From Serratia liquefaciens (GTDB taxonomy: Bacteria > Pseudomonadota > Gammaproteobacteria > Enterobacterales > Enterobacteriaceae), in NCBI RefSeq assembly GCF_027594825.1, contig NZ_CP088930.1, positions 3,099,019 through 3,163,018 on the forward strand: a DNA stretch of 64,000 bases, read 5' to 3'. The translations under genes and the position numbers were made by a program. Shown in pieces: positions 47,302 to 56,740 of the stretch. Position 1 is the first letter of the stretch. Each line of letters opens with the position of its first letter. The notes beneath the pieces are model-generated. The model was given only the letters and a program-made list of their open reading frames with translations. It did no database searches and was not told the DNA's origin.

Positions 47302-49366
<2,065 letters not shown>

Positions 49367-49378
49367 CAGTCCAGACGG

Positions 49379-49408
49379 TAACGCCCGGTCCCGGTTGGTC
49401 GGGCGTTA
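49379..49408 (+). terminator. stem-loop between prtS and inh
   Basis: 9-bp stem TAACGCCCG (49379-49387) / CGGGCGTTA (49400-49408). No T tract; likely an attenuator or mRNA processing element that lowers inh relative to prtS. Confidence 0.5.
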
Positions 49409-49421
49409 TACGGGAGCCGAT

Positions 49422-49799
49422 ATGAAGGGCAGCTTAGCGCACGCCGCCTTAGTGGCAGGCGGCATGATGGTTACGGGAGCAGTTATGGCCGGCAGTTTGG
49501 TTCTTCTCAGCGCGCAGTCACTGGCGGGGCAATGGCAGGTTGCCAATGCGGAACAGCAATGTCAGATACAATTTTTGGCCGACGAACAGCATGAAACCCA
49601 CGGCTACGTCTTGGTCGATCGCCAGCATTGTTTGGAGAAGGTGTTAACCGCCGAGGTCGTCGGTTGGCGGCCGGCGCCGGATGGCATCGCTTTGCTTCGG
49701 GCGGATGGCAGTACGCTGGCGTTCTTCTCGCGCGATGGCGATATTTACCGCAACCAGCTTGGGGCCGATGATGGTCTGACGCTGAAGGCGCTGGTATAA
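49422..49799 (+). CDS. inh: periplasmic serralysin inhibitor (Inh/AprI family)
   Basis: 125-residue protein with a signal peptide (hydrophobic residues about 5-32). The mature chain begins near SLAGQWQVA, and the family's N-terminal strand inserts into the protease active cleft. Two cysteines (in QCQIQF and HCLEK) fit the conserved disulfide. It is 55 bases downstream of prtS and protects the periplasm from any prematurely folded protease. MKGSLA at 49422 has GGGAG upstream. Confidence 0.9.
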   Translation: MKGSLAHAALVAGGMMVTGAVMAGSLVLLSAQSLAGQWQVANAEQQCQIQFLADEQHETHGYVLVDRQHCLEKVLTAEVVGWRPAPDGIALLRADGSTLAFFSRDGDIYRNQLGADDGLTLKALV

Positions 49800-50465: not shown

Positions 50466-50864
50466 TATGTCTTCCTTATTCATTATGGGAACCGCAGCAG
50501 CCGGTTCCAAATTGTCACCAGTGTCACTTCCTGATTGCAGTGTAGGCAGCGCCCCTGCAATCGACAATGCTTTCTTGCTGATGAACGGTAACTTATTTGC
50601 AGAGCAAGAAAGGGCGGCGAAGTTTCTTTCGAACAAACCTGCTGACAATGGCGGTTCAAGCGTTGCGGATCATTTTCTGAGAGCCATAACGTTCAGATGA
50701 GAATGCTAATTAATTAGTCATTAATGCTGTGCGTGACAATAATAGCTAAGGATTAATCTTAGAATCTCATTATTATTTAGCAGGTTGGGTAACTGTATTT
50801 GCAGTTTTAGCTTTTTTTAGACCCACCATCGGTCCCGCTTGATACATGATGTTTCTGGGGAGTT
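50466..50864. other. intergenic region at left edge of the recombinase island
   Basis: 399 bases between the divergent yhhN and FimB-like gene. GC content falls sharply after about 50690; the stretch up to the recombinase start is rich in A/T with small dyads (TTAATTAA near 50708, AAGGATTAATCTT near 50748). I looked for a copy of the 53337 inverted repeat here and saw none. GGGGAG at 50856-50861 is the recombinase ribosome-binding site. Confidence 0.5.
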
Positions 50865-51422
50865 ATGCAATTGGAAATAAGAAAATATCTGAATGAATCA
50901 GAAATAAAAAAAATGATAAAAAATATAAAGGGGGGACTGAATTCGATCAGGGACAGTTGCATGATCACCATGTGTTTTGTTCACGGTTTGCGGGCCAGCG
51001 AGTTAAGCCGTATGACGGTGGACAATATAGAACTCGCCGAGCGGCGGGTTTTTATTTCGCGATTGAAGAATGGTCTGTCGGTTCAGCACCCATTACAACC
51101 TGATGAGACCCTGATGCTTAAACGCTGGCTGGATTACCGCAAAGACAGCCCGCACGCCGGCCAGCCCTGGTTATTTTTGTCGCGTAAAGGCGGCCGGTTA
51201 TCGCGCCAGCAAATCTACCGACTGATCCGTGATTACGGCAAAGCGGCACGTCTCGAATTACCAGCCCATCCCCATATGTTACGCCACGCCTGCGGCTACA
51301 GTCTGGCAAATAAAGGTATGGATACCCGACTGATACAGGATTATCTCGGCCACCGGAATATTCAGCATACGGTACTCTATACCGCCAGTAATGTCCGCCG
51401 TTTCAAAAGAATCGAATTTTAA
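50865..51422 (+). CDS. FimB/FimE-type tyrosine recombinase (left copy)
   Basis: 185-residue compact integrase without an N-terminal arm-binding domain, as in FimB, FimE and MrpI. Catalytic set: Arg in HGLRASEL (about residue 44), HPHMLRHACGYSLA (His...Arg-His), LGHRNIQHT and the nucleophile Tyr in VLYTASN (about 173). The N-terminus is Lys/Asn-rich and AT-rich, unlike the rest. It faces the tandem-HTH gene convergently. It resembles the right-hand recombinase closely, but no inverted-repeat pair is visible next to this copy. Confidence 0.88.
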   Translation: MQLEIRKYLNESEIKKMIKNIKGGLNSIRDSCMITMCFVHGLRASELSRMTVDNIELAERRVFISRLKNGLSVQHPLQPDETLMLKRWLDYRKDSPHAGQPWLFLSRKGGRLSRQQIYRLIRDYGKAARLELPAHPHMLRHACGYSLANKGMDTRLIQDYLGHRNIQHTVLYTASNVRRFKRIEF

Positions 51423-51493
51423 CTTTCGCCCAGAAGATTAATTCTCTTGAAATAGCCACAGTGTGAACTCACTGTCGTAACGGCCGTCGGTCA

Positions 51494-52267
51494 TTAAATG
51501 ACACTCTTCCACCGCTGTGTGAACGGGGTGTTTGTTTCGGGCTCAATATTGCAATGCTCGGCGGCGGCGGCAAACAATGCCACCTCATGGGGCACGTTAA
51601 GTCGCCGCATAATATTGTGCTTTTGACCACTGACCGTTTTGACGCTTTTCCCCAGCGACTGTGCGGTCGCCGTGACGCTGCCGTTGCACAGCAGAGCGGT
51701 CAACACCTGTTGTTCCGCCGCCGGCAAGGCAACTTGCGCAGTGGTGTGGTGCGGGCCGTAAAGCAGCGCCCCCAGCGCATAGAGCTCGCCGTTGTGCCGC
51801 AAGCCGGCTTTGTCCATTGCTCGCTTTTTATGGCTGGAAATGGTGCGAATATCTCGGTTCATGCGGGCGGCCAACTGCCAGGGATGCATACCGCCGAGCA
51901 ATGTCAGTAATACCCGACTCTCAGTTAGCGTCAAGAATGGCAGGCTTTGTGGCTGTTTGGCGGCCAGACCGGGGGCAATGTTCAGCACGCCTAACAGACG
52001 GTGCCAGGCGGGGGCGGAAAACGGTGCCAGCAGGCTCAGCTTCAGGTCATGCCGACAGGACTTCAGCACCACCAGTTGCCACAGTAGCGGCAGCCAGTTG
52101 ACGCCGCCGGTATGGGGCAGGGGCTCCAGCCGCACGGCGCTTTCGGCGGCGGGGTGTAGTTTAAGGACAATGCTGGGCAGACTGTCTGCCGTGGCGATAT
52201 TACGCAGCAGGTCCTGCTCCCTGGGGGCGGGGAAATAGCCGGTGTGCTCGTTAACGGTCAAACGCAT
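51494..52267 (-). CDS. LuxR-type protein with two tandem helix-turn-helix domains
   Basis: 257-residue protein of unknown role. Residues 1-105 show no recognised sensor domain. Two LuxR/GerE-like HTH units follow: LTLTESRVLLTLLGGMHPWQLAARM...ISSHKKRAMDKAG (about 112-165) and PAAEQQVLTALLCNGSVTATAQSLGKSVKTVSGQKHNIMRRL (about 181-232). Two GerE domains in one chain is unusual. AGGAGA precedes the ATG. Together with the 56-aa and CaiF-like genes upstream it forms a leftward cluster aimed away from the invertible element. Confidence 0.75.
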   Translation of the reverse strand: MRLTVNEHTGYFPAPREQDLLRNIATADSLPSIVLKLHPAAESAVRLEPLPHTGGVNWLPLLWQLVVLKSCRHDLKLSLLAPFSAPAWHRLLGVLNIAPGLAAKQPQSLPFLTLTESRVLLTLLGGMHPWQLAARMNRDIRTISSHKKRAMDKAGLRHNGELYALGALLYGPHHTTAQVALPAAEQQVLTALLCNGSVTATAQSLGKSVKTVSGQKHNIMRRLNVPHEVALFAAAAEHCNIEPETNTPFTQRWKSVI

Positions 52268-52306
52268 ATCATCTCTCCTGCAATCAAATGAAAAATAGCG
52301 CCGGGG

Positions 52307-52477
52307 TTAAAACACCCAGTAGAGCAGCAGCGCAAACAGACACCAGAGCAGTGCACTGAGAGCAAACACCAGATCCCAGGCAAACTGTTCCAGGTAATAC
52401 AGGGTTCTTTTGGTCAAGAGCGGGTTATCCCCCTTGGTTTGAAAAAGCCGGGGCCGATTAAACGCAACGCTGTTCAT
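52307..52477 (-). CDS. 56-residue single-pass membrane protein (unannotated small ORF)
   Basis: Reads MNSVAFNRPRLF..., then NPLLTKRTLYYLEQFAWDL (about 19-36), followed by one hydrophobic helix (about residues 36-55) ending YWVF. It fits neatly between the CaiF-like gene and the tandem-HTH gene on the same strand, with 39- and 78-base gaps. The pre-helix segment recalls the N-terminus of PgaD/HmsS-type proteins, but that similarity is weak and only an impression. Shine-Dalgarno is poor, so expression may depend on upstream translation. Confidence 0.55.
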   Translation of the reverse strand: MNSVAFNRPRLFQTKGDNPLLTKRTLYYLEQFAWDLVFALSALLWCLFALLLYWVF

Positions 52478-52555
52478 GTCATCACGGCCTGGCCCCGGTG
52501 GGAAAAGTTGTCTATAAGCAACGTCCCCAACGAGGGGAGCGAAGAGGGCCGGCTA

Positions 52556-52936
52556 TTACAGATGCAGTTCGCTCCACGGTCGCTGAAGCAGCTGTGCCCA
52601 GACGTTTTGCCTGTCTTCACTGTGAACCCGGGTGCTCTTCGTTCGTAATGGCTGGGGTTGGCTTACCGTGCGGATCCAGACCCGCAGTTCCTGGCGGTGC
52701 GATCGCGGATGGGTGTAAACGTGTTGATCGCAGGTGATGCAAGGGCTGTGCACTATATAGCGCAGAATATAACCCGCCTTGCGGCGCGATACGTTAAAGG
52801 CCTGCATGATGCGTTGGCGGTTCAGATAGTGGTTTTGCAGTAACCCCCAGGTGGCCACAATACGACATAACGGCTGTTCGGCCAGGTGCGCTACCGTTTC
52901 TGGCAGGGTGATATTCTCGTCATGCTGAAGCTTCAT
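52556..52936 (-). CDS. CaiF/GrlA-like transcriptional regulator
   Basis: 126-residue DNA-binding protein. LPETVAHLAEQPLCRIVATWGLLQNHYLNRQRIMQAFNVSRRKAGYIL (about residues 11-58) matches the winged-helix start of the CaiF/GrlA family, whose members regulate carnitine genes or the LEE pathogenicity island. Two cysteines (CITCDQ, about 66-69) follow. MKLQ at 52936 has GGGGA upstream; the frame could begin at 53005. It is the first gene that would be transcribed if the nearby switch were inverted. Confidence 0.72.
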   Translation of the reverse strand: MKLQHDENITLPETVAHLAEQPLCRIVATWGLLQNHYLNRQRIMQAFNVSRRKAGYILRYIVHSPCITCDQHVYTHPRSHRQELRVWIRTVSQPQPLRTKSTRVHSEDRQNVWAQLLQRPWSELHL

Positions 52937-53109
52937 AAAGTCCCCAGTCTCCTTGATCAATGAATAGTTGTTAGGGTGGCCTTCAGTCGCCGCGCCATTT
53001 CCCACAGGACGCTATCGGCCAGGTAACTTTGCCATTTTCATTTCACCAACCGGTTATTTTGGGATGGCAACGTATAACTTTTCTTACACCCGATGCTTCT
53101 GATTAATTA

Positions 53110-53220
53110 ATGGAGTCGCTGTTGGATAGCTTGAAAAAAGCATTTGTGAAGCTGCTGTCACTATTGGGTGCTTTCTTCATATGCACGTTTCCATCAATAT
53201 TTCCACCCTTGCTATTTTAA
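53110..53220 (+). CDS. possible 36-residue amphipathic/hydrophobic peptide
   Basis: ATG-to-TAA frame MESLLDSLKKAFVKLL followed by SLLGAFFICTFPSIFPPLLF, an amphipathic helix then a hydrophobic run. There is no Shine-Dalgarno sequence before the ATG (ATTAATTA), and it lies antisense to the predicted leader of the CaiF-like gene, so it may be chance. It resembles small membrane-active peptides in composition only. Confidence 0.2.
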   Translation: MESLLDSLKKAFVKLLSLLGAFFICTFPSIFPPLLF

Positions 53221-53336
53221 GGGAGGATCAGGTGCCAAGATGCAAAATTGCCACACAGTATATTTGTTTGAGTTATTTTTTATTTCCCCTTTAATTTCAA
53301 TTGGTTATTCGTGTTTCTGATGTGCTGAAAATGCGA

Positions 53337-53359
53337 CATTTTGGACCAAAGTGTGACAT
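53337..53359 (+). repeat. left inverted repeat (IRL) of the invertible element
   Basis: CATTTTGGACCAAAGTGT-G-ACAT. The first 18 bases are identical to the reverse complement of 53626-53643; after one mismatch a further 4 match. The core TTTGGACCAAA is itself palindromic around a central A and resembles the E. coli fimS repeat TTGGGGCCA. Confidence 0.9.
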
Positions 53360-53501
53360 TCAGATAATTAAGCTGATTTTTTTGTATTTTGGTATGGCAA
53401 TGTTTCATTTTGTGCTGAATATAGCCGATTTATCAGTGCATATATCTAAAAATAAAATGACGTTGCCTCACTGTTTAATTGAGTTAATTTATTTAACAAA
53501 G

Positions 53502-53525
53502 GTTCGCTCTTGCGGGCCTTTTTTA
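53502..53525 (+). terminator. rightward intrinsic terminator inside the invertible element
   Basis: Stem GGTTCGC / GCGGGCC (two G-U pairs), loop TCTT, followed by T6 and further T-rich sequence. It would insulate the internal promoter from transcription entering from the left. Confidence 0.6.
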
Positions 53526-53592
53526 TTTATTTTCGTGGGTGGTTGATATTGAAGGGAATAAAATTATTGCGTAAAAGCGGGGGGTATTCTTA

Positions 53593-53620
53593 TTGACTTG
53601 AAATTGTACAAAACTAAGAT
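53593..53620 (+). promoter_or_regulatory. outward promoter inside the invertible element
   Basis: -35 TTGACT (53593-53598), 16-base spacer, -10 TAAGAT (53615-53620). The predicted start (about 53627) lies within the right inverted repeat, as the fimA start lies beside the fimS right repeat. Confidence 0.65.
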
Positions 53621-53643
53621 ATGTAACACTTTGGTCCAAAATG
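53621..53643 (-). repeat. right inverted repeat (IRR) of the invertible element
   Basis: Reverse complement of the left repeat with one mismatch in 23. It lies 14 bases from the recombinase stop codon. Confidence 0.9.
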
Positions 53644-53657
53644 ACCTATTTTTCACC

Positions 53658-54215
53658 TCACTTTTTTTGCCATAATCCAATAAAGCGATTGGGATTGCTG
53701 GCGGTATATATCACCGTATGTCGAATATTCCGGTGACCCAGATAATCCTGAATCAAACGCGTGTCGACGCCCGAATCCGCCAGTGCAAAGCCACAGGCAT
53801 GCCGCAGCATATGTGGGTGCGATGACACCGTAATATTGGCGGCCTCGCCGTAACGTTTAATCAAGTAATGCACGTGTTTACGCGTCAGTTGGCCGCCTTT
53901 TTGCGACAGAAATAGCCACTCGCTGTCAGCATCGCGCCACCTGCCGCGCAAATTCAGCCAGCACAACAAGTGCGGCAGCTCATCTTGCGCCAGGGGATGC
54001 ACGGTCGAAAAACCGTTCTTCAGGCGACGGATATAAATCACGTTATCGCGCAAATCGATATCAGATATTTTTAACTGACAGGCTTCGCTGGCGCGCAGCC
54101 CATGGATAAAACACATCTGAATTAAACAACGGTCACGCTCCGGATGTTTTCCAATGTGCGTGGCAAACAGAATGTCATTTATTTCACCGAGAGTGAGGTG
54201 TTTTCGAGTTTTCAT
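53658..54215 (-). CDS. FimB/FimE-type tyrosine recombinase (right copy, beside the switch)
   Basis: 185-residue integrase with the arm-less fim-recombinase architecture. Catalytic residues are in FIHGLRASEAC (Arg), HPHMLRHACGFALA, LGHRNIRHT and VIYTASN (Tyr). RRLKNGFSTVHPL is word-for-word FimE-like. Its 3' end adjoins the invertible element, the same arrangement as fimE next to fimS. With the promoter in the assembled orientation an antisense transcript through this gene is expected. Likely catalyses inversion of 53337-53643. Confidence 0.9.
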   Translation of the reverse strand: MKTRKHLTLGEINDILFATHIGKHPERDRCLIQMCFIHGLRASEACQLKISDIDLRDNVIYIRRLKNGFSTVHPLAQDELPHLLCWLNLRGRWRDADSEWLFLSQKGGQLTRKHVHYLIKRYGEAANITVSSHPHMLRHACGFALADSGVDTRLIQDYLGHRNIRHTVIYTASNPNRFIGLWQKK

Positions 54216-54271
54216 TATTTTGGCTCCATATACCCTCTCCGGCCCGATGCCGTATGAGGATCTTACCGGAG

Positions 54272-54311
54272 AGAAAATAGCCTGTTTCCATTTTTTACGT
54301 ATCTATTTTCT
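54272..54311. promoter_or_regulatory. dyad in the divergent recombinase/operon intergenic region
   Basis: AGAAAATAG (54272-54280) / CTATTTTCT (54303-54311), 9-bp perfect inverted arms separated by 22 bases. It lies between the divergent starts of the recombinase (54215) and the rightward operon (54361). A candidate operator for one of the local regulators; no known factor matched. Confidence 0.4.
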
Positions 54312-54360
54312 TCGCGAATAAATGGCGGCAGCCGATCTGACATGAGGAGTAAAAACCACC

Positions 54361-54666
54361 ATGCAGCAGGAAATAACCGCGATGTCCGCACCCACGATAC
54401 TCACCCGCAAGGCCGCCCGTGCCGTTGCCGGAAAAGCCGCCAGTTTGGAGCGGCGCATCATGCAACTTAGCGGCATGGCTTATGGCGTAGAAGATTGGTT
54501 GTGCGCTTTGCGCAAGGCTGCCGAGCTGTGGCGTTGCGTCAGTGAGACGCCATTGTTGGCTGAAAACGAACGGCGCTATGCCCGGTTACGCCACCGGCAT
54601 TGTTCGCACCCGGCTACCCAATTGCTGGTACGTCAACGCTATCAGGCCGATAGCCAGCAACCCTGA
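54361..54666 (+). CDS. hypothetical basic protein, 101 residues
   Basis: Arg/Ala-rich, helix-predicted protein with no domain I recognise (KAARAVAGKAASLERRIMQL, then a WLCALRKAAELWRC segment with two Cys). It is the first gene of a rightward cluster that continues with two LuxR-like regulators and small envelope proteins. GAGGAG lies 11 bases before this ATG; an internal ATG at 54382 is the alternative start. Function unknown. Confidence 0.6.
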   Translation: MQQEITAMSAPTILTRKAARAVAGKAASLERRIMQLSGMAYGVEDWLCALRKAAELWRCVSETPLLAENERRYARLRHRHCSHPATQLLVRQRYQADSQQP

Positions 54667-54688
54667 ATCCACTGCAGAGGACAAATTT

Positions 54689-55375
54689 ATGTCTGCAAGC
54701 TCCCTTCCACCGCGTTTGCGTGTGGTCGTGATGATGAGGCCGGGGTTGATGCGCGAAGGCACCCTGCGGGTGCTCGAACTGGCCGGTCAGGCAATCGCAT
54801 CGTTAACCGTGGTCGACGATCTTTTGACTCTGCGACAGGCGCTGTCGCAAGGCGGAGCGGATGTCATCCTCACCGGCCTCTTCGGGCACCGCGACAGGCT
54901 GCGCGACTTTTTTCTGTTCTATTCCCACTACCTGCGCTTCAACATCGACACGACCTGGCTGCTGTACAGCGAACCCCTGACGCCGTTGCTAACCACCTTA
55001 AGCCCGTTAGCCCCCCATGAAGGGCCGTTGTGCTTGCCACACGATCTGCAGCCGCATCTGTTGCACGATTTGCTGATGAAACGCCAGGCATTGAGCCACC
55101 TTGCCTTTATGAACCGCGACCCATTGCACCGGATGCCGGCGAATATTGTGCTCAGTTGGCCGGAGTTGCAGGTTCTCAGTCATTTTGTCTGTGGCGTACT
55201 TGAACATCTCACTACACCGACGGGCGGGTTCACGACGAAGACCCTGAGCGCCCATAAACGCAGCGCGATGCGCAAACTGGGCGTGTGTTGCGATCAACAA
55301 CTCCATGCGTTGCTGCATGGATCTCGGCTATGCCCAGCAAGGAGGCTCCCGGATGTGGCCGTCAGCCAGGGATAA
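54689..55375 (+). CDS. LuxR-family protein with degenerate receiver domain
   Basis: 228-residue RcsA/RcsB-like architecture. The N-terminal half folds like a response-regulator receiver, but the acidic pair is replaced (MMRPGLMREG, R17/P18) and the phosphoacceptor Asp is lost (ADVILTGLFG, T62). It therefore cannot be a conventional phosphorylated receiver. The C-terminal GerE-like HTH (about 165-215) is recognisable by LSWPELQVLSHF...TTKTLSAHKRSAMRKLGV. AGAGGA precedes the ATG at good spacing. It overlaps the next small gene by 23 bases. Confidence 0.7.
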   Translation: MSASSLPPRLRVVVMMRPGLMREGTLRVLELAGQAIASLTVVDDLLTLRQALSQGGADVILTGLFGHRDRLRDFFLFYSHYLRFNIDTTWLLYSEPLTPLLTTLSPLAPHEGPLCLPHDLQPHLLHDLLMKRQALSHLAFMNRDPLHRMPANIVLSWPELQVLSHFVCGVLEHLTTPTGGFTTKTLSAHKRSAMRKLGVCCDQQLHALLHGSRLCPARRLPDVAVSQG

Positions 55376-55472
55376 ACGTATCCGTCGCTACACCTGGCTG
55401 GCGATGCTGCTGGTTTGTGGCATGTTTTGGTGGGGGGTTATTTGGTGCGTGCTGAAATTTACCGGTCTTTAA
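55353..55472 (+). CDS. 39-residue single-pass membrane protein (unannotated small ORF)
   Basis: MWPSARDKRIRRYTW then a Trp-rich hydrophobic helix (about residues 15-34) ending KFTGL; basic N-terminus predicts N-in topology. A strong AAGGAGG is 8 bases before the ATG. The stop overlaps the next start as TAATG, and the start overlaps the preceding regulator, so translation is probably coupled. This is a second tiny membrane protein beside a LuxR-type gene in the island. Confidence 0.65.
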   Translation: MWPSARDKRIRRYTWLAMLLVCGMFWWGVIWCVLKFTGL

Positions 55473-56062
55473 TGGCCAGCCGGCGATGGTCAAGCCGATT
55501 CTTAAAACAATTTTCCGACAAGTGCTTACCCCCTCAGGGCTTTACGCTCGCCGTTGGGGGGGCGGCAGCTTTGTTGGGGGGCATGCTGTTTTTCCCTCAG
55601 GCTGAGGCGAGCACGTGGATGGGCAGCTCGCCGGCTTCTTTTATCGGCAGCTGTCGGAAGAACGCATTGCTGCAGATAGTGGCGCAGTGCCGCCATGATG
55701 CGAGCGCGCTTGATACTTCGCCCGCGCGTCACTCCGGGCGTTATCTCCACGCGCTGAACGACCGGCTTGCTCAATGGGGGATCGGCCCTGCAGCAGATGC
55801 CAGCTCTTCGTTGACCCGCCGTCAGCGTTGCGAGCTGTATCAATTCTGTGGGTTGTTGCATCAGCAGGCGGGCAGGCAACTGTTGGACCAGCTGTTTTTG
55901 CCACAGGGTGGGATGGCTGAAGTGGATTATCGTACGGTGGCCATCAAGGCTCCCTGTTTAAGGAGAAACAATGATACGTCTAAAAGTGATGATCATGGAG
56001 CCGGATCCCTGGTTTCGGCTCGGGGTCTTGTCGGTGCTTGCCTCGCTCCCGGCTCAGTTTGA
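55472..56062 (+). CDS. hypothetical exported protein with 3' overlap into the next gene
   Basis: 196 residues; a basic N-terminus and hydrophobic stretch (about residues 24-45) ending in AEAS look like an export signal. The remainder has paired cysteines (SCRKN, QCRHD, RCELYQFC). No family recognised. Its frame runs 92 bases into the downstream LuxR gene, whose Shine-Dalgarno is strong. The last about 31 residues may be non-native, because another frame has a stop (GTTTAA) just before that Shine-Dalgarno. Possible small frameshift near the 3' end. Confidence 0.5.
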   Translation: MASRRWSSRFLKQFSDKCLPPQGFTLAVGGAAALLGGMLFFPQAEASTWMGSSPASFIGSCRKNALLQIVAQCRHDASALDTSPARHSGRYLHALNDRLAQWGIGPAADASSSLTRRQRCELYQFCGLLHQQAGRQLLDQLFLPQGGMAEVDYRTVAIKAPCLRRNNDTSKSDDHGAGSLVSARGLVGACLAPGSV

Positions 56063-56654
56063 AGTCTGTGGGGTCACCGATCGGCTGTCGGATTTACAGA
56101 GTCTGGTGCACAAACAGCCGTTTGATCTGTTGCTTTCAGACACTCATGGGCAGGGTGAAAGCCTGGATGACTACTTTGTCTTTCGCAGGGGATTTTGCAA
56201 GAGGCACTCTCATGTGACCTGGCTGATGTGGAGCGACGGTTATGGCCCTTTCTTATCGGGCCTGTCTTCTCGGCTGAAACTGCCGGTTTGCCTGCAAAAA
56301 ACGCTGGGGCCTGCCGAGTTGAATTCGCTGTTGGTGCTGCGTCATCGGCTGGGGCATCAGCATTTTTTGGTCGAACATCAGCGGACCCAAGTGTGCGTAT
56401 GCTGCCACCTGACGCAAAAAGAGCTTTTGGTTATCAGCGCGCTGGCACATGGCGAACCGCAAAAGCAACTGGCGCGGCGCTTGGGCCGCAGTGAAAAAAC
56501 CATCAGTTCACACAAGATCCAGGCCTTGCACAAGCTGGGCGCCAGTAGCGATCGGCGGTTATTTCATCATCAAGGAGAAAACCTCCTGCTGGAAATTCTG
56601 CGCTATGCGGGCATCAATATTCCCCATGACCCCTATGGGAGTTACTCGGCGTAA
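55971..56654 (+). CDS. RcsB/NarL-type response regulator-like protein
   Basis: 227 residues. The receiver-like domain retains plausible phosphorylation residues: E10 and D12 (MEPDPWFRLG), D57 in FDLLLSDTHG and K110 in LQKTLGPAEL. A GerE HTH follows (LTQKELLVISALAHGEPQKQLARRLGRSEKTISSHKIQALHKLG, about 148-191). No cognate histidine kinase lies in the window. AAGGAGAAACA precedes the ATG. Last gene of the island, followed by the conserved yhhM. Confidence 0.78.
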   Translation: MIRLKVMIMEPDPWFRLGVLSVLASLPAQFEVCGVTDRLSDLQSLVHKQPFDLLLSDTHGQGESLDDYFVFRRGFCKRHSHVTWLMWSDGYGPFLSGLSSRLKLPVCLQKTLGPAELNSLLVLRHRLGHQHFLVEHQRTQVCVCCHLTQKELLVISALAHGEPQKQLARRLGRSEKTISSHKIQALHKLGASSDRRLFHHQGENLLLEILRYAGINIPHDPYGSYSA

Positions 56655-56740
56655 CTCAATCTGATGCCGGTGATAAGCTGTGTAGTGGGGAGCGTATGCT
56701 ATGTTTACGCTGATTTCACCGCGTGGAGATGGGAATAAAG

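What the first reader, a model, noticed from the sequence alone, without database searches (positions are those of the whole stretch)
53337..53643. Previously unremarked fimS-like invertible promoter switch
The sequence directly shows 23-bp inverted repeats (22/23) at 53337-53359 and 53621-53643, spaced like the fim switch. Between them lie a rightward terminator hairpin and a TTGACT-N16-TAAGAT promoter whose start falls in the right repeat. The repeat core TTGGACCAA is close to the fimS repeat TTGGGGCCA. A FimB/E-type recombinase ends 14 bases away. In known fim switches the promoter drives a fimbrial major subunit. Here inversion would aim it at a CaiF/GrlA-like regulator, so the phase-variable output would be a transcription cascade.
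Basis: partly seen in the sequence, partly recalled or inferred. Interest (0 to 1): 0.88.

Follow-up and report, generated by a model that had tools for sequence, protein, structure and literature searches.

The report
Flip-switch promoter for gene regulators
In a Serratia genome, a short DNA segment that enzymes of the FimB/FimE kind can probably flip carries a promoter aimed, in one orientation, at a pair of gene regulators instead of at hair-like fimbriae, so single cells could randomly switch a regulatory programme on or off.

Summary
The repeats extend to 32-nt arms (88%) and score above all 2000 shuffles. Two FimB/FimE-family recombinases with intact active-site motifs bracket the locus. 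It belongs to the Fim-type switch family: two other switches in the same genome, beside fimbrial genes, have similar arms (TTTTGRACCAAAGTGT) and 266/273-bp spacing (261 here), and the two arms of each switch share a core. The promoter, unremarkable as a consensus match, recurs at the equivalent place in Trabulsiella odontotermitis. In a second Serratia species the arms are 97-100% identical, the leader 59% (76% without gaps).

The element lies in a 6.1-kb island of recombinases, regulators and small unknown genes, absent at that site from five other Serratia genomes checked. Flipped, its promoter would read into a CaiF/GrlA-like gene, a small membrane-protein ORF and a LuxR-type gene. The layout recurs in Trabulsiella; a looser version elsewhere adds an autotransporter.

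Inversion is unproven: 4 of 4 assemblies show one orientation. New variant of a known kind.

The parts
   Evidence: 31 of 32 bases identical in G006, 32 of 32 in G007
53360..53620 (.). invertible interior, 261 bp
53498..53521 (+). intrinsic-terminator-like hairpin, reading right in this orientation; after inversion it would stop read-through from recombinase 2 before the promoter (inference)
   Evidence: 19 of 24 bases identical in G006, pairing kept by eye
53593..53620 (+). sigma-70-like promoter TTGACT-N16-TAAGAT, reading toward recombinase 2 in this orientation (OFF for the CaiF operon)
   Evidence: counterpart in Trabulsiella TTGACT-N16-TAATAT; 27 of 28 bases in G006
   Evidence: 32 of 32 bases identical in G006
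53658..54215 (-). recombinase 2, FimB/FimE family, 185 aa, active-site motifs intact
   Evidence: NF007370 257.8 bits, cut-off 221; motifs; dN/dS 0.12 against G006
50865..51422 (+). recombinase 1, FimB/FimE family, bracketing the left end
   Evidence: NF007370 232.3 bits (scanned from 50868); motifs; dN/dS 0.05 against G006
52556..52939 (-). CaiF/GrlA-like regulator, first gene downstream of the switch when flipped
   Evidence: PF07180 E 1.7e-11; dN/dS 0.08 against G006
52307..52477 (-). 56-aa ORF, hydrophobic C-terminal half by eye (probable membrane protein)
   Evidence: no Pfam match above cut-off; dN/dS 0.45 against G006
51494..52267 (-). LuxR-type regulator with two matched HTH stretches, last gene of the switched operon
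   Evidence: PF00196 E 3.6e-12, 2 stretches; 39% over 174 residues to the Trabulsiella counterpart; dN/dS 0.13 against G006
52940..53327 (-). leader between switch and CaiF-like start, poorly conserved: 228 of 388 bases identical in G006, 88 of the 388 being opposite gaps; no Rfam match
54361..56654 (+). divergent block beyond recombinase 2: 101-aa unknown (54361-54666), weak LuxR-like (54689-55375, GerE E 0.076), unknown ORF (55415-56062), LuxR-type (55971-56654)
   Evidence: dN/dS 0.10, 0.19 and 0.15 against G006 for the first, second and fourth
50578..56695 (.). island, boundaries good to some tens of bases: the flanks are 3 bases apart in three Serratia genomes without it

Best explanation
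A phase-variation switch of the FimB/FimE tyrosine-recombinase kind. One or both flanking recombinases bind the half-sites in the repeat arms, exchange strands at the shared core, and invert the 261-bp interior. In the sequenced orientation the internal promoter reads toward the recombinase's 3' end (OFF for the regulators, antisense to recombinase 2). Inverted, it reads left through a ~400-nt leader into a CaiF/GrlA-like gene, a small membrane-protein ORF and a LuxR-type gene (ON). In ON the internal terminator would lie upstream of the promoter and block read-through from recombinase 2. The output would be a regulatory programme acting elsewhere in the genome, as StdE/StdF do in Salmonella. 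Shown: anatomy, families, conservation, recurrence. Inferred: inversion, promoter activity, operon, regulon.
For: Repeat pair beyond chance. Both recombinases match the tyrosine DNA invertase family and keep GLRASE/HPHMLRHA/YLGHR/Y motifs. Two sister switches in the same genome, each between a FimB-type recombinase and fimbrial genes (the subunits confirmed by Pfam, chaperone and usher named by eye). The two arms of each switch share their own core while half-sites are similar between switches, as expected for tyrosine-recombinase sites. Arms and promoter 96-100% identical in G006, where the leader is 59% (76% of aligned bases) and the left interior 71%. Promoter and proximal arm conserved in Trabulsiella, where the layout (two recombinases bracketing switch, CaiF-like and LuxR-type genes) recurs. 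S. nevei and G003 have the two-recombinase layout with fimbrial genes and LuxR-like matches between. Low dN/dS on regulators and recombinases, G000 against G006.
Against: No inverted copy seen: 4 of 4 assemblies (G000, G007, G006, T. odontotermitis) have the same orientation. Three similar switches in G019 are also all in one orientation. Consensus promoter and terminator are individually no better than chance. In Trabulsiella the two arms share only a 9-base core (TTTGGACCA) and the repeat finder did not list them as a pair. The Trabulsiella CaiF-like protein is only 28% identical overall, and the first gene after its switch is a small protein without Pfam match, not CaiF. No read or RNA data were available.
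Confidence: 0.83

Rival explanations
1. Two-way toggle: the promoter serves both orientations. Flipped left it drives CaiF-TM-LuxR; as sequenced it runs antisense through recombinase 2 and on into the + strand block 54361-56654, so the switch selects between two regulator sets.
For: Between 53620 and 54700 the scan shows no terminator-like site and no other consensus promoter on the + strand. In Trabulsiella the gene beyond the recombinase (EAL-domain) and in L178 the AraC-type gene have the same relative sense.
Against: 734 nt of antisense first; three concordant gene directions are expected by chance 1 time in 8; pattern scans miss weak promoters (none was found for recombinase 2 either). 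In Trabulsiella a terminator-like hairpin, the palindromic arm itself, directly follows the promoter on that strand. At the fimbrial switches L138, L139 and S. nevei L109 the gene beyond the recombinase has the opposite relative sense.
Confidence: 0.1
2. Relic: a fimbrial switch that lost its fimbrial genes and no longer works.
For: The layout in S. nevei and G003 has chaperone, usher and subunit genes between the two recombinases; here they are absent.
Against: All genes open, dN/dS 0.05-0.19 for regulators and recombinases, one genome pair; arms conserved against a diverged background; Trabulsiella has a similar fimbria-less arrangement; in G014 and G003 the fimbrial locus lies elsewhere and the island site lacks the island.
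Confidence: 0.04
3. The repeats are operator or recombinase-autoregulation sites, not recombination sites.
For: Cores are near-palindromic and could bind a dimer; only one orientation seen.
Against: Both arms share a switch-specific core, lie in opposite orientation at 261-273-nt spacing, with a FimB-type recombinase at one side, here and in four other Serratia switches.
Confidence: 0.03

Closest known systems
ipuS / ipuA-ipuB / ipuR-upaE, E. coli CFT073 (PMC6083910, passages)
   Same: 260-bp element beside FimB-type recombinases; promoter inside; ON orientation drives a LuxR-type regulator gene
   Different: there the regulator is followed by an autotransporter, repeats are 7 bp and one lies inside ipuA; here CaiF/GrlA-like plus LuxR-type genes, no recognised surface protein in the operon, repeats outside the recombinase gene
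hyxS / FimX / hyxR, uropathogenic E. coli (described in PMC6083910, passages)
   Same: Fim-type switch whose output is a transcription regulator
   Different: LuxR-type regulator, only FimX inverts it; no CaiF/GrlA-like gene mentioned in the passages read
StdE/StdF of Salmonella (PMC6173445 and PMC3264584, passages)
   Same: a GrlA/CaiF-related regulator followed by a second DNA-binding regulator, bistably expressed, controlling many genes
   Different: there they end a fimbrial operon under Dam/HdfR control; no DNA inversion described in the passages read. Homology to StdE was not computed here; only membership of the CaiF/GrlA family
The two fimbrial switches of this same genome (L138, L139)
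   Same: recombinase family, similar arms, spacing; a promoter-like site beside the recombinase-proximal arm reading toward the recombinase (L138 by scan; L139 by eye only)
   Different: they face fimbrial chaperone or subunit genes

Membership tests
Fim-type invertible promoter element | adjacent FimB/FimE-family tyrosine recombinase with intact catalytic motifs | tested here: met
Fim-type invertible promoter element | inverted-repeat pair with identical core, roughly 260-320 bp apart | tested here: met
Fim-type invertible promoter element | promoter inside the element directed outward at one end | tested here: inconclusive
   consensus match at chance level but conserved in Trabulsiella
Fim-type invertible promoter element | both orientations occur | tested here: inconclusive
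   4 of 4 assemblies same orientation; the approach does detect both in Photorhabdus, 3 of 13 loci reversed, so 4 is too few
Fim-type invertible promoter element | recombinase-dependent inversion and ON/OFF expression | not testable with these tools
   needs reads, PCR or reporter
Fimbrial (fimS proper) switch | drives a fimbrial subunit operon | tested here: not met
   no fimbrial gene recognised between switch and recombinase 1
Regulator-driving Fim switch (hyxS/ipuS kind) | first operon in ON direction encodes a transcription regulator | tested here: met
   CaiF/GrlA-like and LuxR-type genes; that they form one operon is inferred
StdE/StdF regulators | CaiF/GrlA-family protein followed by a second HTH regulator | tested here: met
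StdE/StdF regulators | direct sequence homology to StdE and StdF | not tested
   no comparison with the Salmonella proteins was run
StdE/StdF regulators | genome-wide regulon | not testable with these tools
   no expression data

The most novel reading that the evidence does not exclude
The island is a free-standing two-state regulatory cassette with no structural payload: one invertible promoter toggles between two divergent regulator blocks (CaiF-TM-LuxR to the left; the 101-aa/LuxR-like/LuxR block to the right, reached through antisense silencing of its own recombinase), so that each orientation sets a different cell-wide programme.
Probability: 0.1. Interest if true: 0.78.

Novelty: new variant of a known kind. 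Interest (0 to 1): 0.52.

Why it matters
Where this survey could name the neighbour of a FimB/FimE-type recombinase, it was mostly a fimbrial gene (33 of 38 recognised, of 80 loci). A cassette that carries only the switch and regulators would let a cell flip a programme at random rather than one surface organ. It offers a compact test of whether phase variation can act as a stand-alone cell-fate switch, and of how several switches with similar half-sites but different cores in one genome avoid or permit cross-talk.

Tried and rejected
A search for the opposite orientation of this switch in the 30 Serratia genomes held (own included) found 3 carriers, all alike. The two fimbrial switches of this genome gave one near-full-length match elsewhere, in G019 at 70% and in the same orientation, and short pieces otherwise. 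Duplicate loci in G019 and G008 were colinear, giving no inverted pair. Rfam gave nothing at E up to 0.1 in 52900-54400. The plasmid collection's best listed recombinases were 61% identical (record limit reached). The fimS comparison by core letters alone was dropped as weak. A first inverted-repeat filter over the 80 named loci listed none for Trabulsiella, nor did repeat finder list its distant pair; its sites rest on reading and alignment to the window's arms. In L178 repeat finder did not list the arm pair either; I read it from the sequence, and its orientation could not be decided because the promoter-like hit lies in the distal arm. A search for CaiF-like genes matched 54 of 392 genomes. 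Of 28 regions fetched for a CaiF hit, 27 had a CaiF match to my references and 5 a FimB-type recombinase (L178, L182, L198, L200, L203; a 27% partial match in L189 was not counted). I looked for a switch directly before CaiF only in L178 and L042/L200. Recombinase relatives in Enterobacter cloacae subsp. dissolvens (79%) and E. quasiroggenkampii (74%) turned up, but their surroundings were not seen; a last genome search found no further close relative beyond Trabulsiella at 80% and one at 67%.

Full report
Check of the observation. In 52940-53700 the best inverted-repeat score is 20, while 2000 dinucleotide-preserving shuffles reached at most 14. The promoter and the terminator hairpin are present, but in number they are no more than shuffles give.

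Setting. The window lies in a complete 5.35-Mb chromosome. The genus is Serratia: two same-genus genomes, G014 and G018, hold contigs whose lengths equal those of named S. nevei and S. proteamaculans contigs. The species is not known. Around the element, left to right: recombinase 1 (+, 50865-51422), a LuxR-type regulator (-, 51494-52267), a 56-aa probable membrane protein (-, 52307-52477), a CaiF/GrlA-like regulator (-, 52556-52939), the switch, recombinase 2 (-, 53658-54215), then a + strand block of a 101-aa unknown, a weak LuxR-like protein, an unknown ORF and a LuxR-type protein. Both recombinases pass the cut-off of NCBIfam NF007370, tyrosine-type DNA invertase, and keep the catalytic motifs.

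It is an island. In three other Serratia genomes (G014, G013, G002) the sequences matching 50577 and 56696 lie 3 bases apart; in G003 258 bases without a match separate the flanks, and in G018 another insertion of about 4.9 kb with efflux-type genes (named by eye) lies there. In G003 and G018 the left flank matches as far as 50614 and the right from 56738, so the ends are good only to some tens of bases. The island (about 50578-56695) thus sits between yhhN (PF07947) and the DUF2500 gene. Of 30 genus genomes, own included, 3 (G000, G007, G006) hold the element. The same 3 have the CaiF-like gene at 95% identity or more; 3 others (G013, G008, G020) have only relatives of 28-43%.

It is of the Fim switch family. 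Beside the two other FimB-type recombinases of this genome lie two more inverted-repeat pairs, 35 and 32 nt with 266 and 273 nt between, each facing fimbrial genes (subunit Pfam matches; chaperones and ushers named by eye). Aligned at the core, the arms have similar half-sites, roughly AAAATGNNACATTTTG and AAAGTGTNACAT, with departures (for example the distal arm of L138). The central bases differ between switches (GGACC here, GAACC in both sisters, GAGCC in G019) but agree between the two arms of each switch. That is what tyrosine recombination needs: matching overlap between partners (established knowledge, recalled). S. nevei (L237) and G003 (L238) show a full layout: recombinase, LuxR-like matches, fimbrial genes with usher and chaperone, switch (arms TTTTGAACTAAAGTGA or TTTTGAGCTAAAGTGA, 271-272 nt between), recombinase. 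In S. nevei I read, by eye in the printed sequence, a TTGACA-N17-TACAGT promoter at the recombinase-proximal arm. The window locus has that layout without the fimbrial genes.

Conservation. Against G006 the arms are 97% and 100% identical and the promoter 96% (27 of 28), while the leader is 59% (228 of 388, 88 positions being gaps; 76% of aligned bases) and the left interior 71% (79 of 111). Its promoter, TTGACT-N16-TAATAT, sits at the equivalent place and direction. Its two arms share only a 9-base core and were not listed by the repeat finder; each aligns to the corresponding window arm. Against G006, dN/dS by my Nei-Gojobori script is 0.12 and 0.05 for the recombinases, 0.08 CaiF-like, 0.13 LuxR-type (gapped alignment), 0.10-0.19 for three right-block genes, 0.45 for the 56-aa ORF. 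One genome pair is a small basis, but it does not look like decay.

How usual. Of 80 named loci with a related recombinase, a crude BLAST against my references recognised a gene within about 2.2 kb on the recombinase's 3' side in 38; in 29 a fimbrial subunit came first or directly after a second recombinase, in 4 a chaperone came first, and CaiF appeared in one, Trabulsiella; 42 of 80 stayed unclassified. CaiF-first switches therefore look rare, but the survey is rough. A search of the 5.8-billion set, which reaches only relatives sharing exact words, gave 7 relatives of this CaiF protein.

Orientation. All four assemblies compared have the promoter toward the recombinase. As a control for what assemblies can show, 13 Photorhabdus loci in the same set carry an element of about 319 bp, and 3 (L070, L084, L085) are reversed relative to the other 10. 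Four matching orientations therefore say little, and no inverted copy of this switch has been seen.

Mechanism. In the sequenced orientation the promoter would make RNA antisense to recombinase 2, and the scan finds no terminator-like site on that strand up to 54700. Flipped, the -35 and -10 boxes stay inside the element, the start would fall in the left arm, and transcription enters a ~400-nt leader and the CaiF-like gene. The hairpin at 53498-53521 would then lie upstream of the promoter, against read-through from recombinase 2. Orientation-dependent termination of fimE transcripts is known in E. coli (recalled, not looked up). Which recombinase acts, and in which direction, is open. The bolder toggle reading meets one result against it: in Trabulsiella a terminator-like hairpin, the palindromic arm, follows the promoter directly.

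Against the literature. hyxS-hyxR and ipuS-ipuR-upaE put regulators under Fim-type switches (PMC6083910, passages). StdE, related to GrlA and CaiF, and StdF bind DNA and control many genes; the std operon is bistable and under Dam methylation and HdfR (PMC6173445 and PMC3264584, passages). [quoted passage not shown] PMC11349298, a Serratia paper that came up, mentions invertible promoters only in its reference list (passages). In the listings of my searches I saw no Fim-type switch in front of a CaiF/GrlA-like gene and none described for Serratia regulators; I opened five papers in part, and subscription journals are largely missing. I therefore rate it a new variant of a known kind.

Noticed in passing
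   Followed up: partly
L138:6345-6680 and L139:13187-13523 (own genome, about 312 kb and 5176 kb): Two further Fim-type switches beside fimbrial genes; both cores read GAACC, so recombination between the two loci is conceivable.
   Followed up: partly
L230, L231, L232 (G019): Three similar recombinase-switch copies in one genome, all in the same orientation.
   Followed up: partly
L125/L126 and L234 (G008, about 641 kb and 956 kb): A recombinase and CaiF-like region appears twice in one genome; the 3 kb compared are 99.9% identical.
   Followed up: no
L070, L084, L085 against 10 other Photorhabdus loci: A switch of about 319 bp caught in both orientations among species representatives.
   Followed up: yes
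window 47834-49366 and 49395-49799: Serralysin-type metalloprotease gene followed by an Inh-type protease inhibitor gene, next to the island.
   Followed up: no
L243:1412-6308 (G018): The same yhhN/DUF2500 junction carries a different insertion with membrane-fusion, FUSC-like and outer-membrane efflux genes (named by eye): a possible insertion hot spot.
   Followed up: partly
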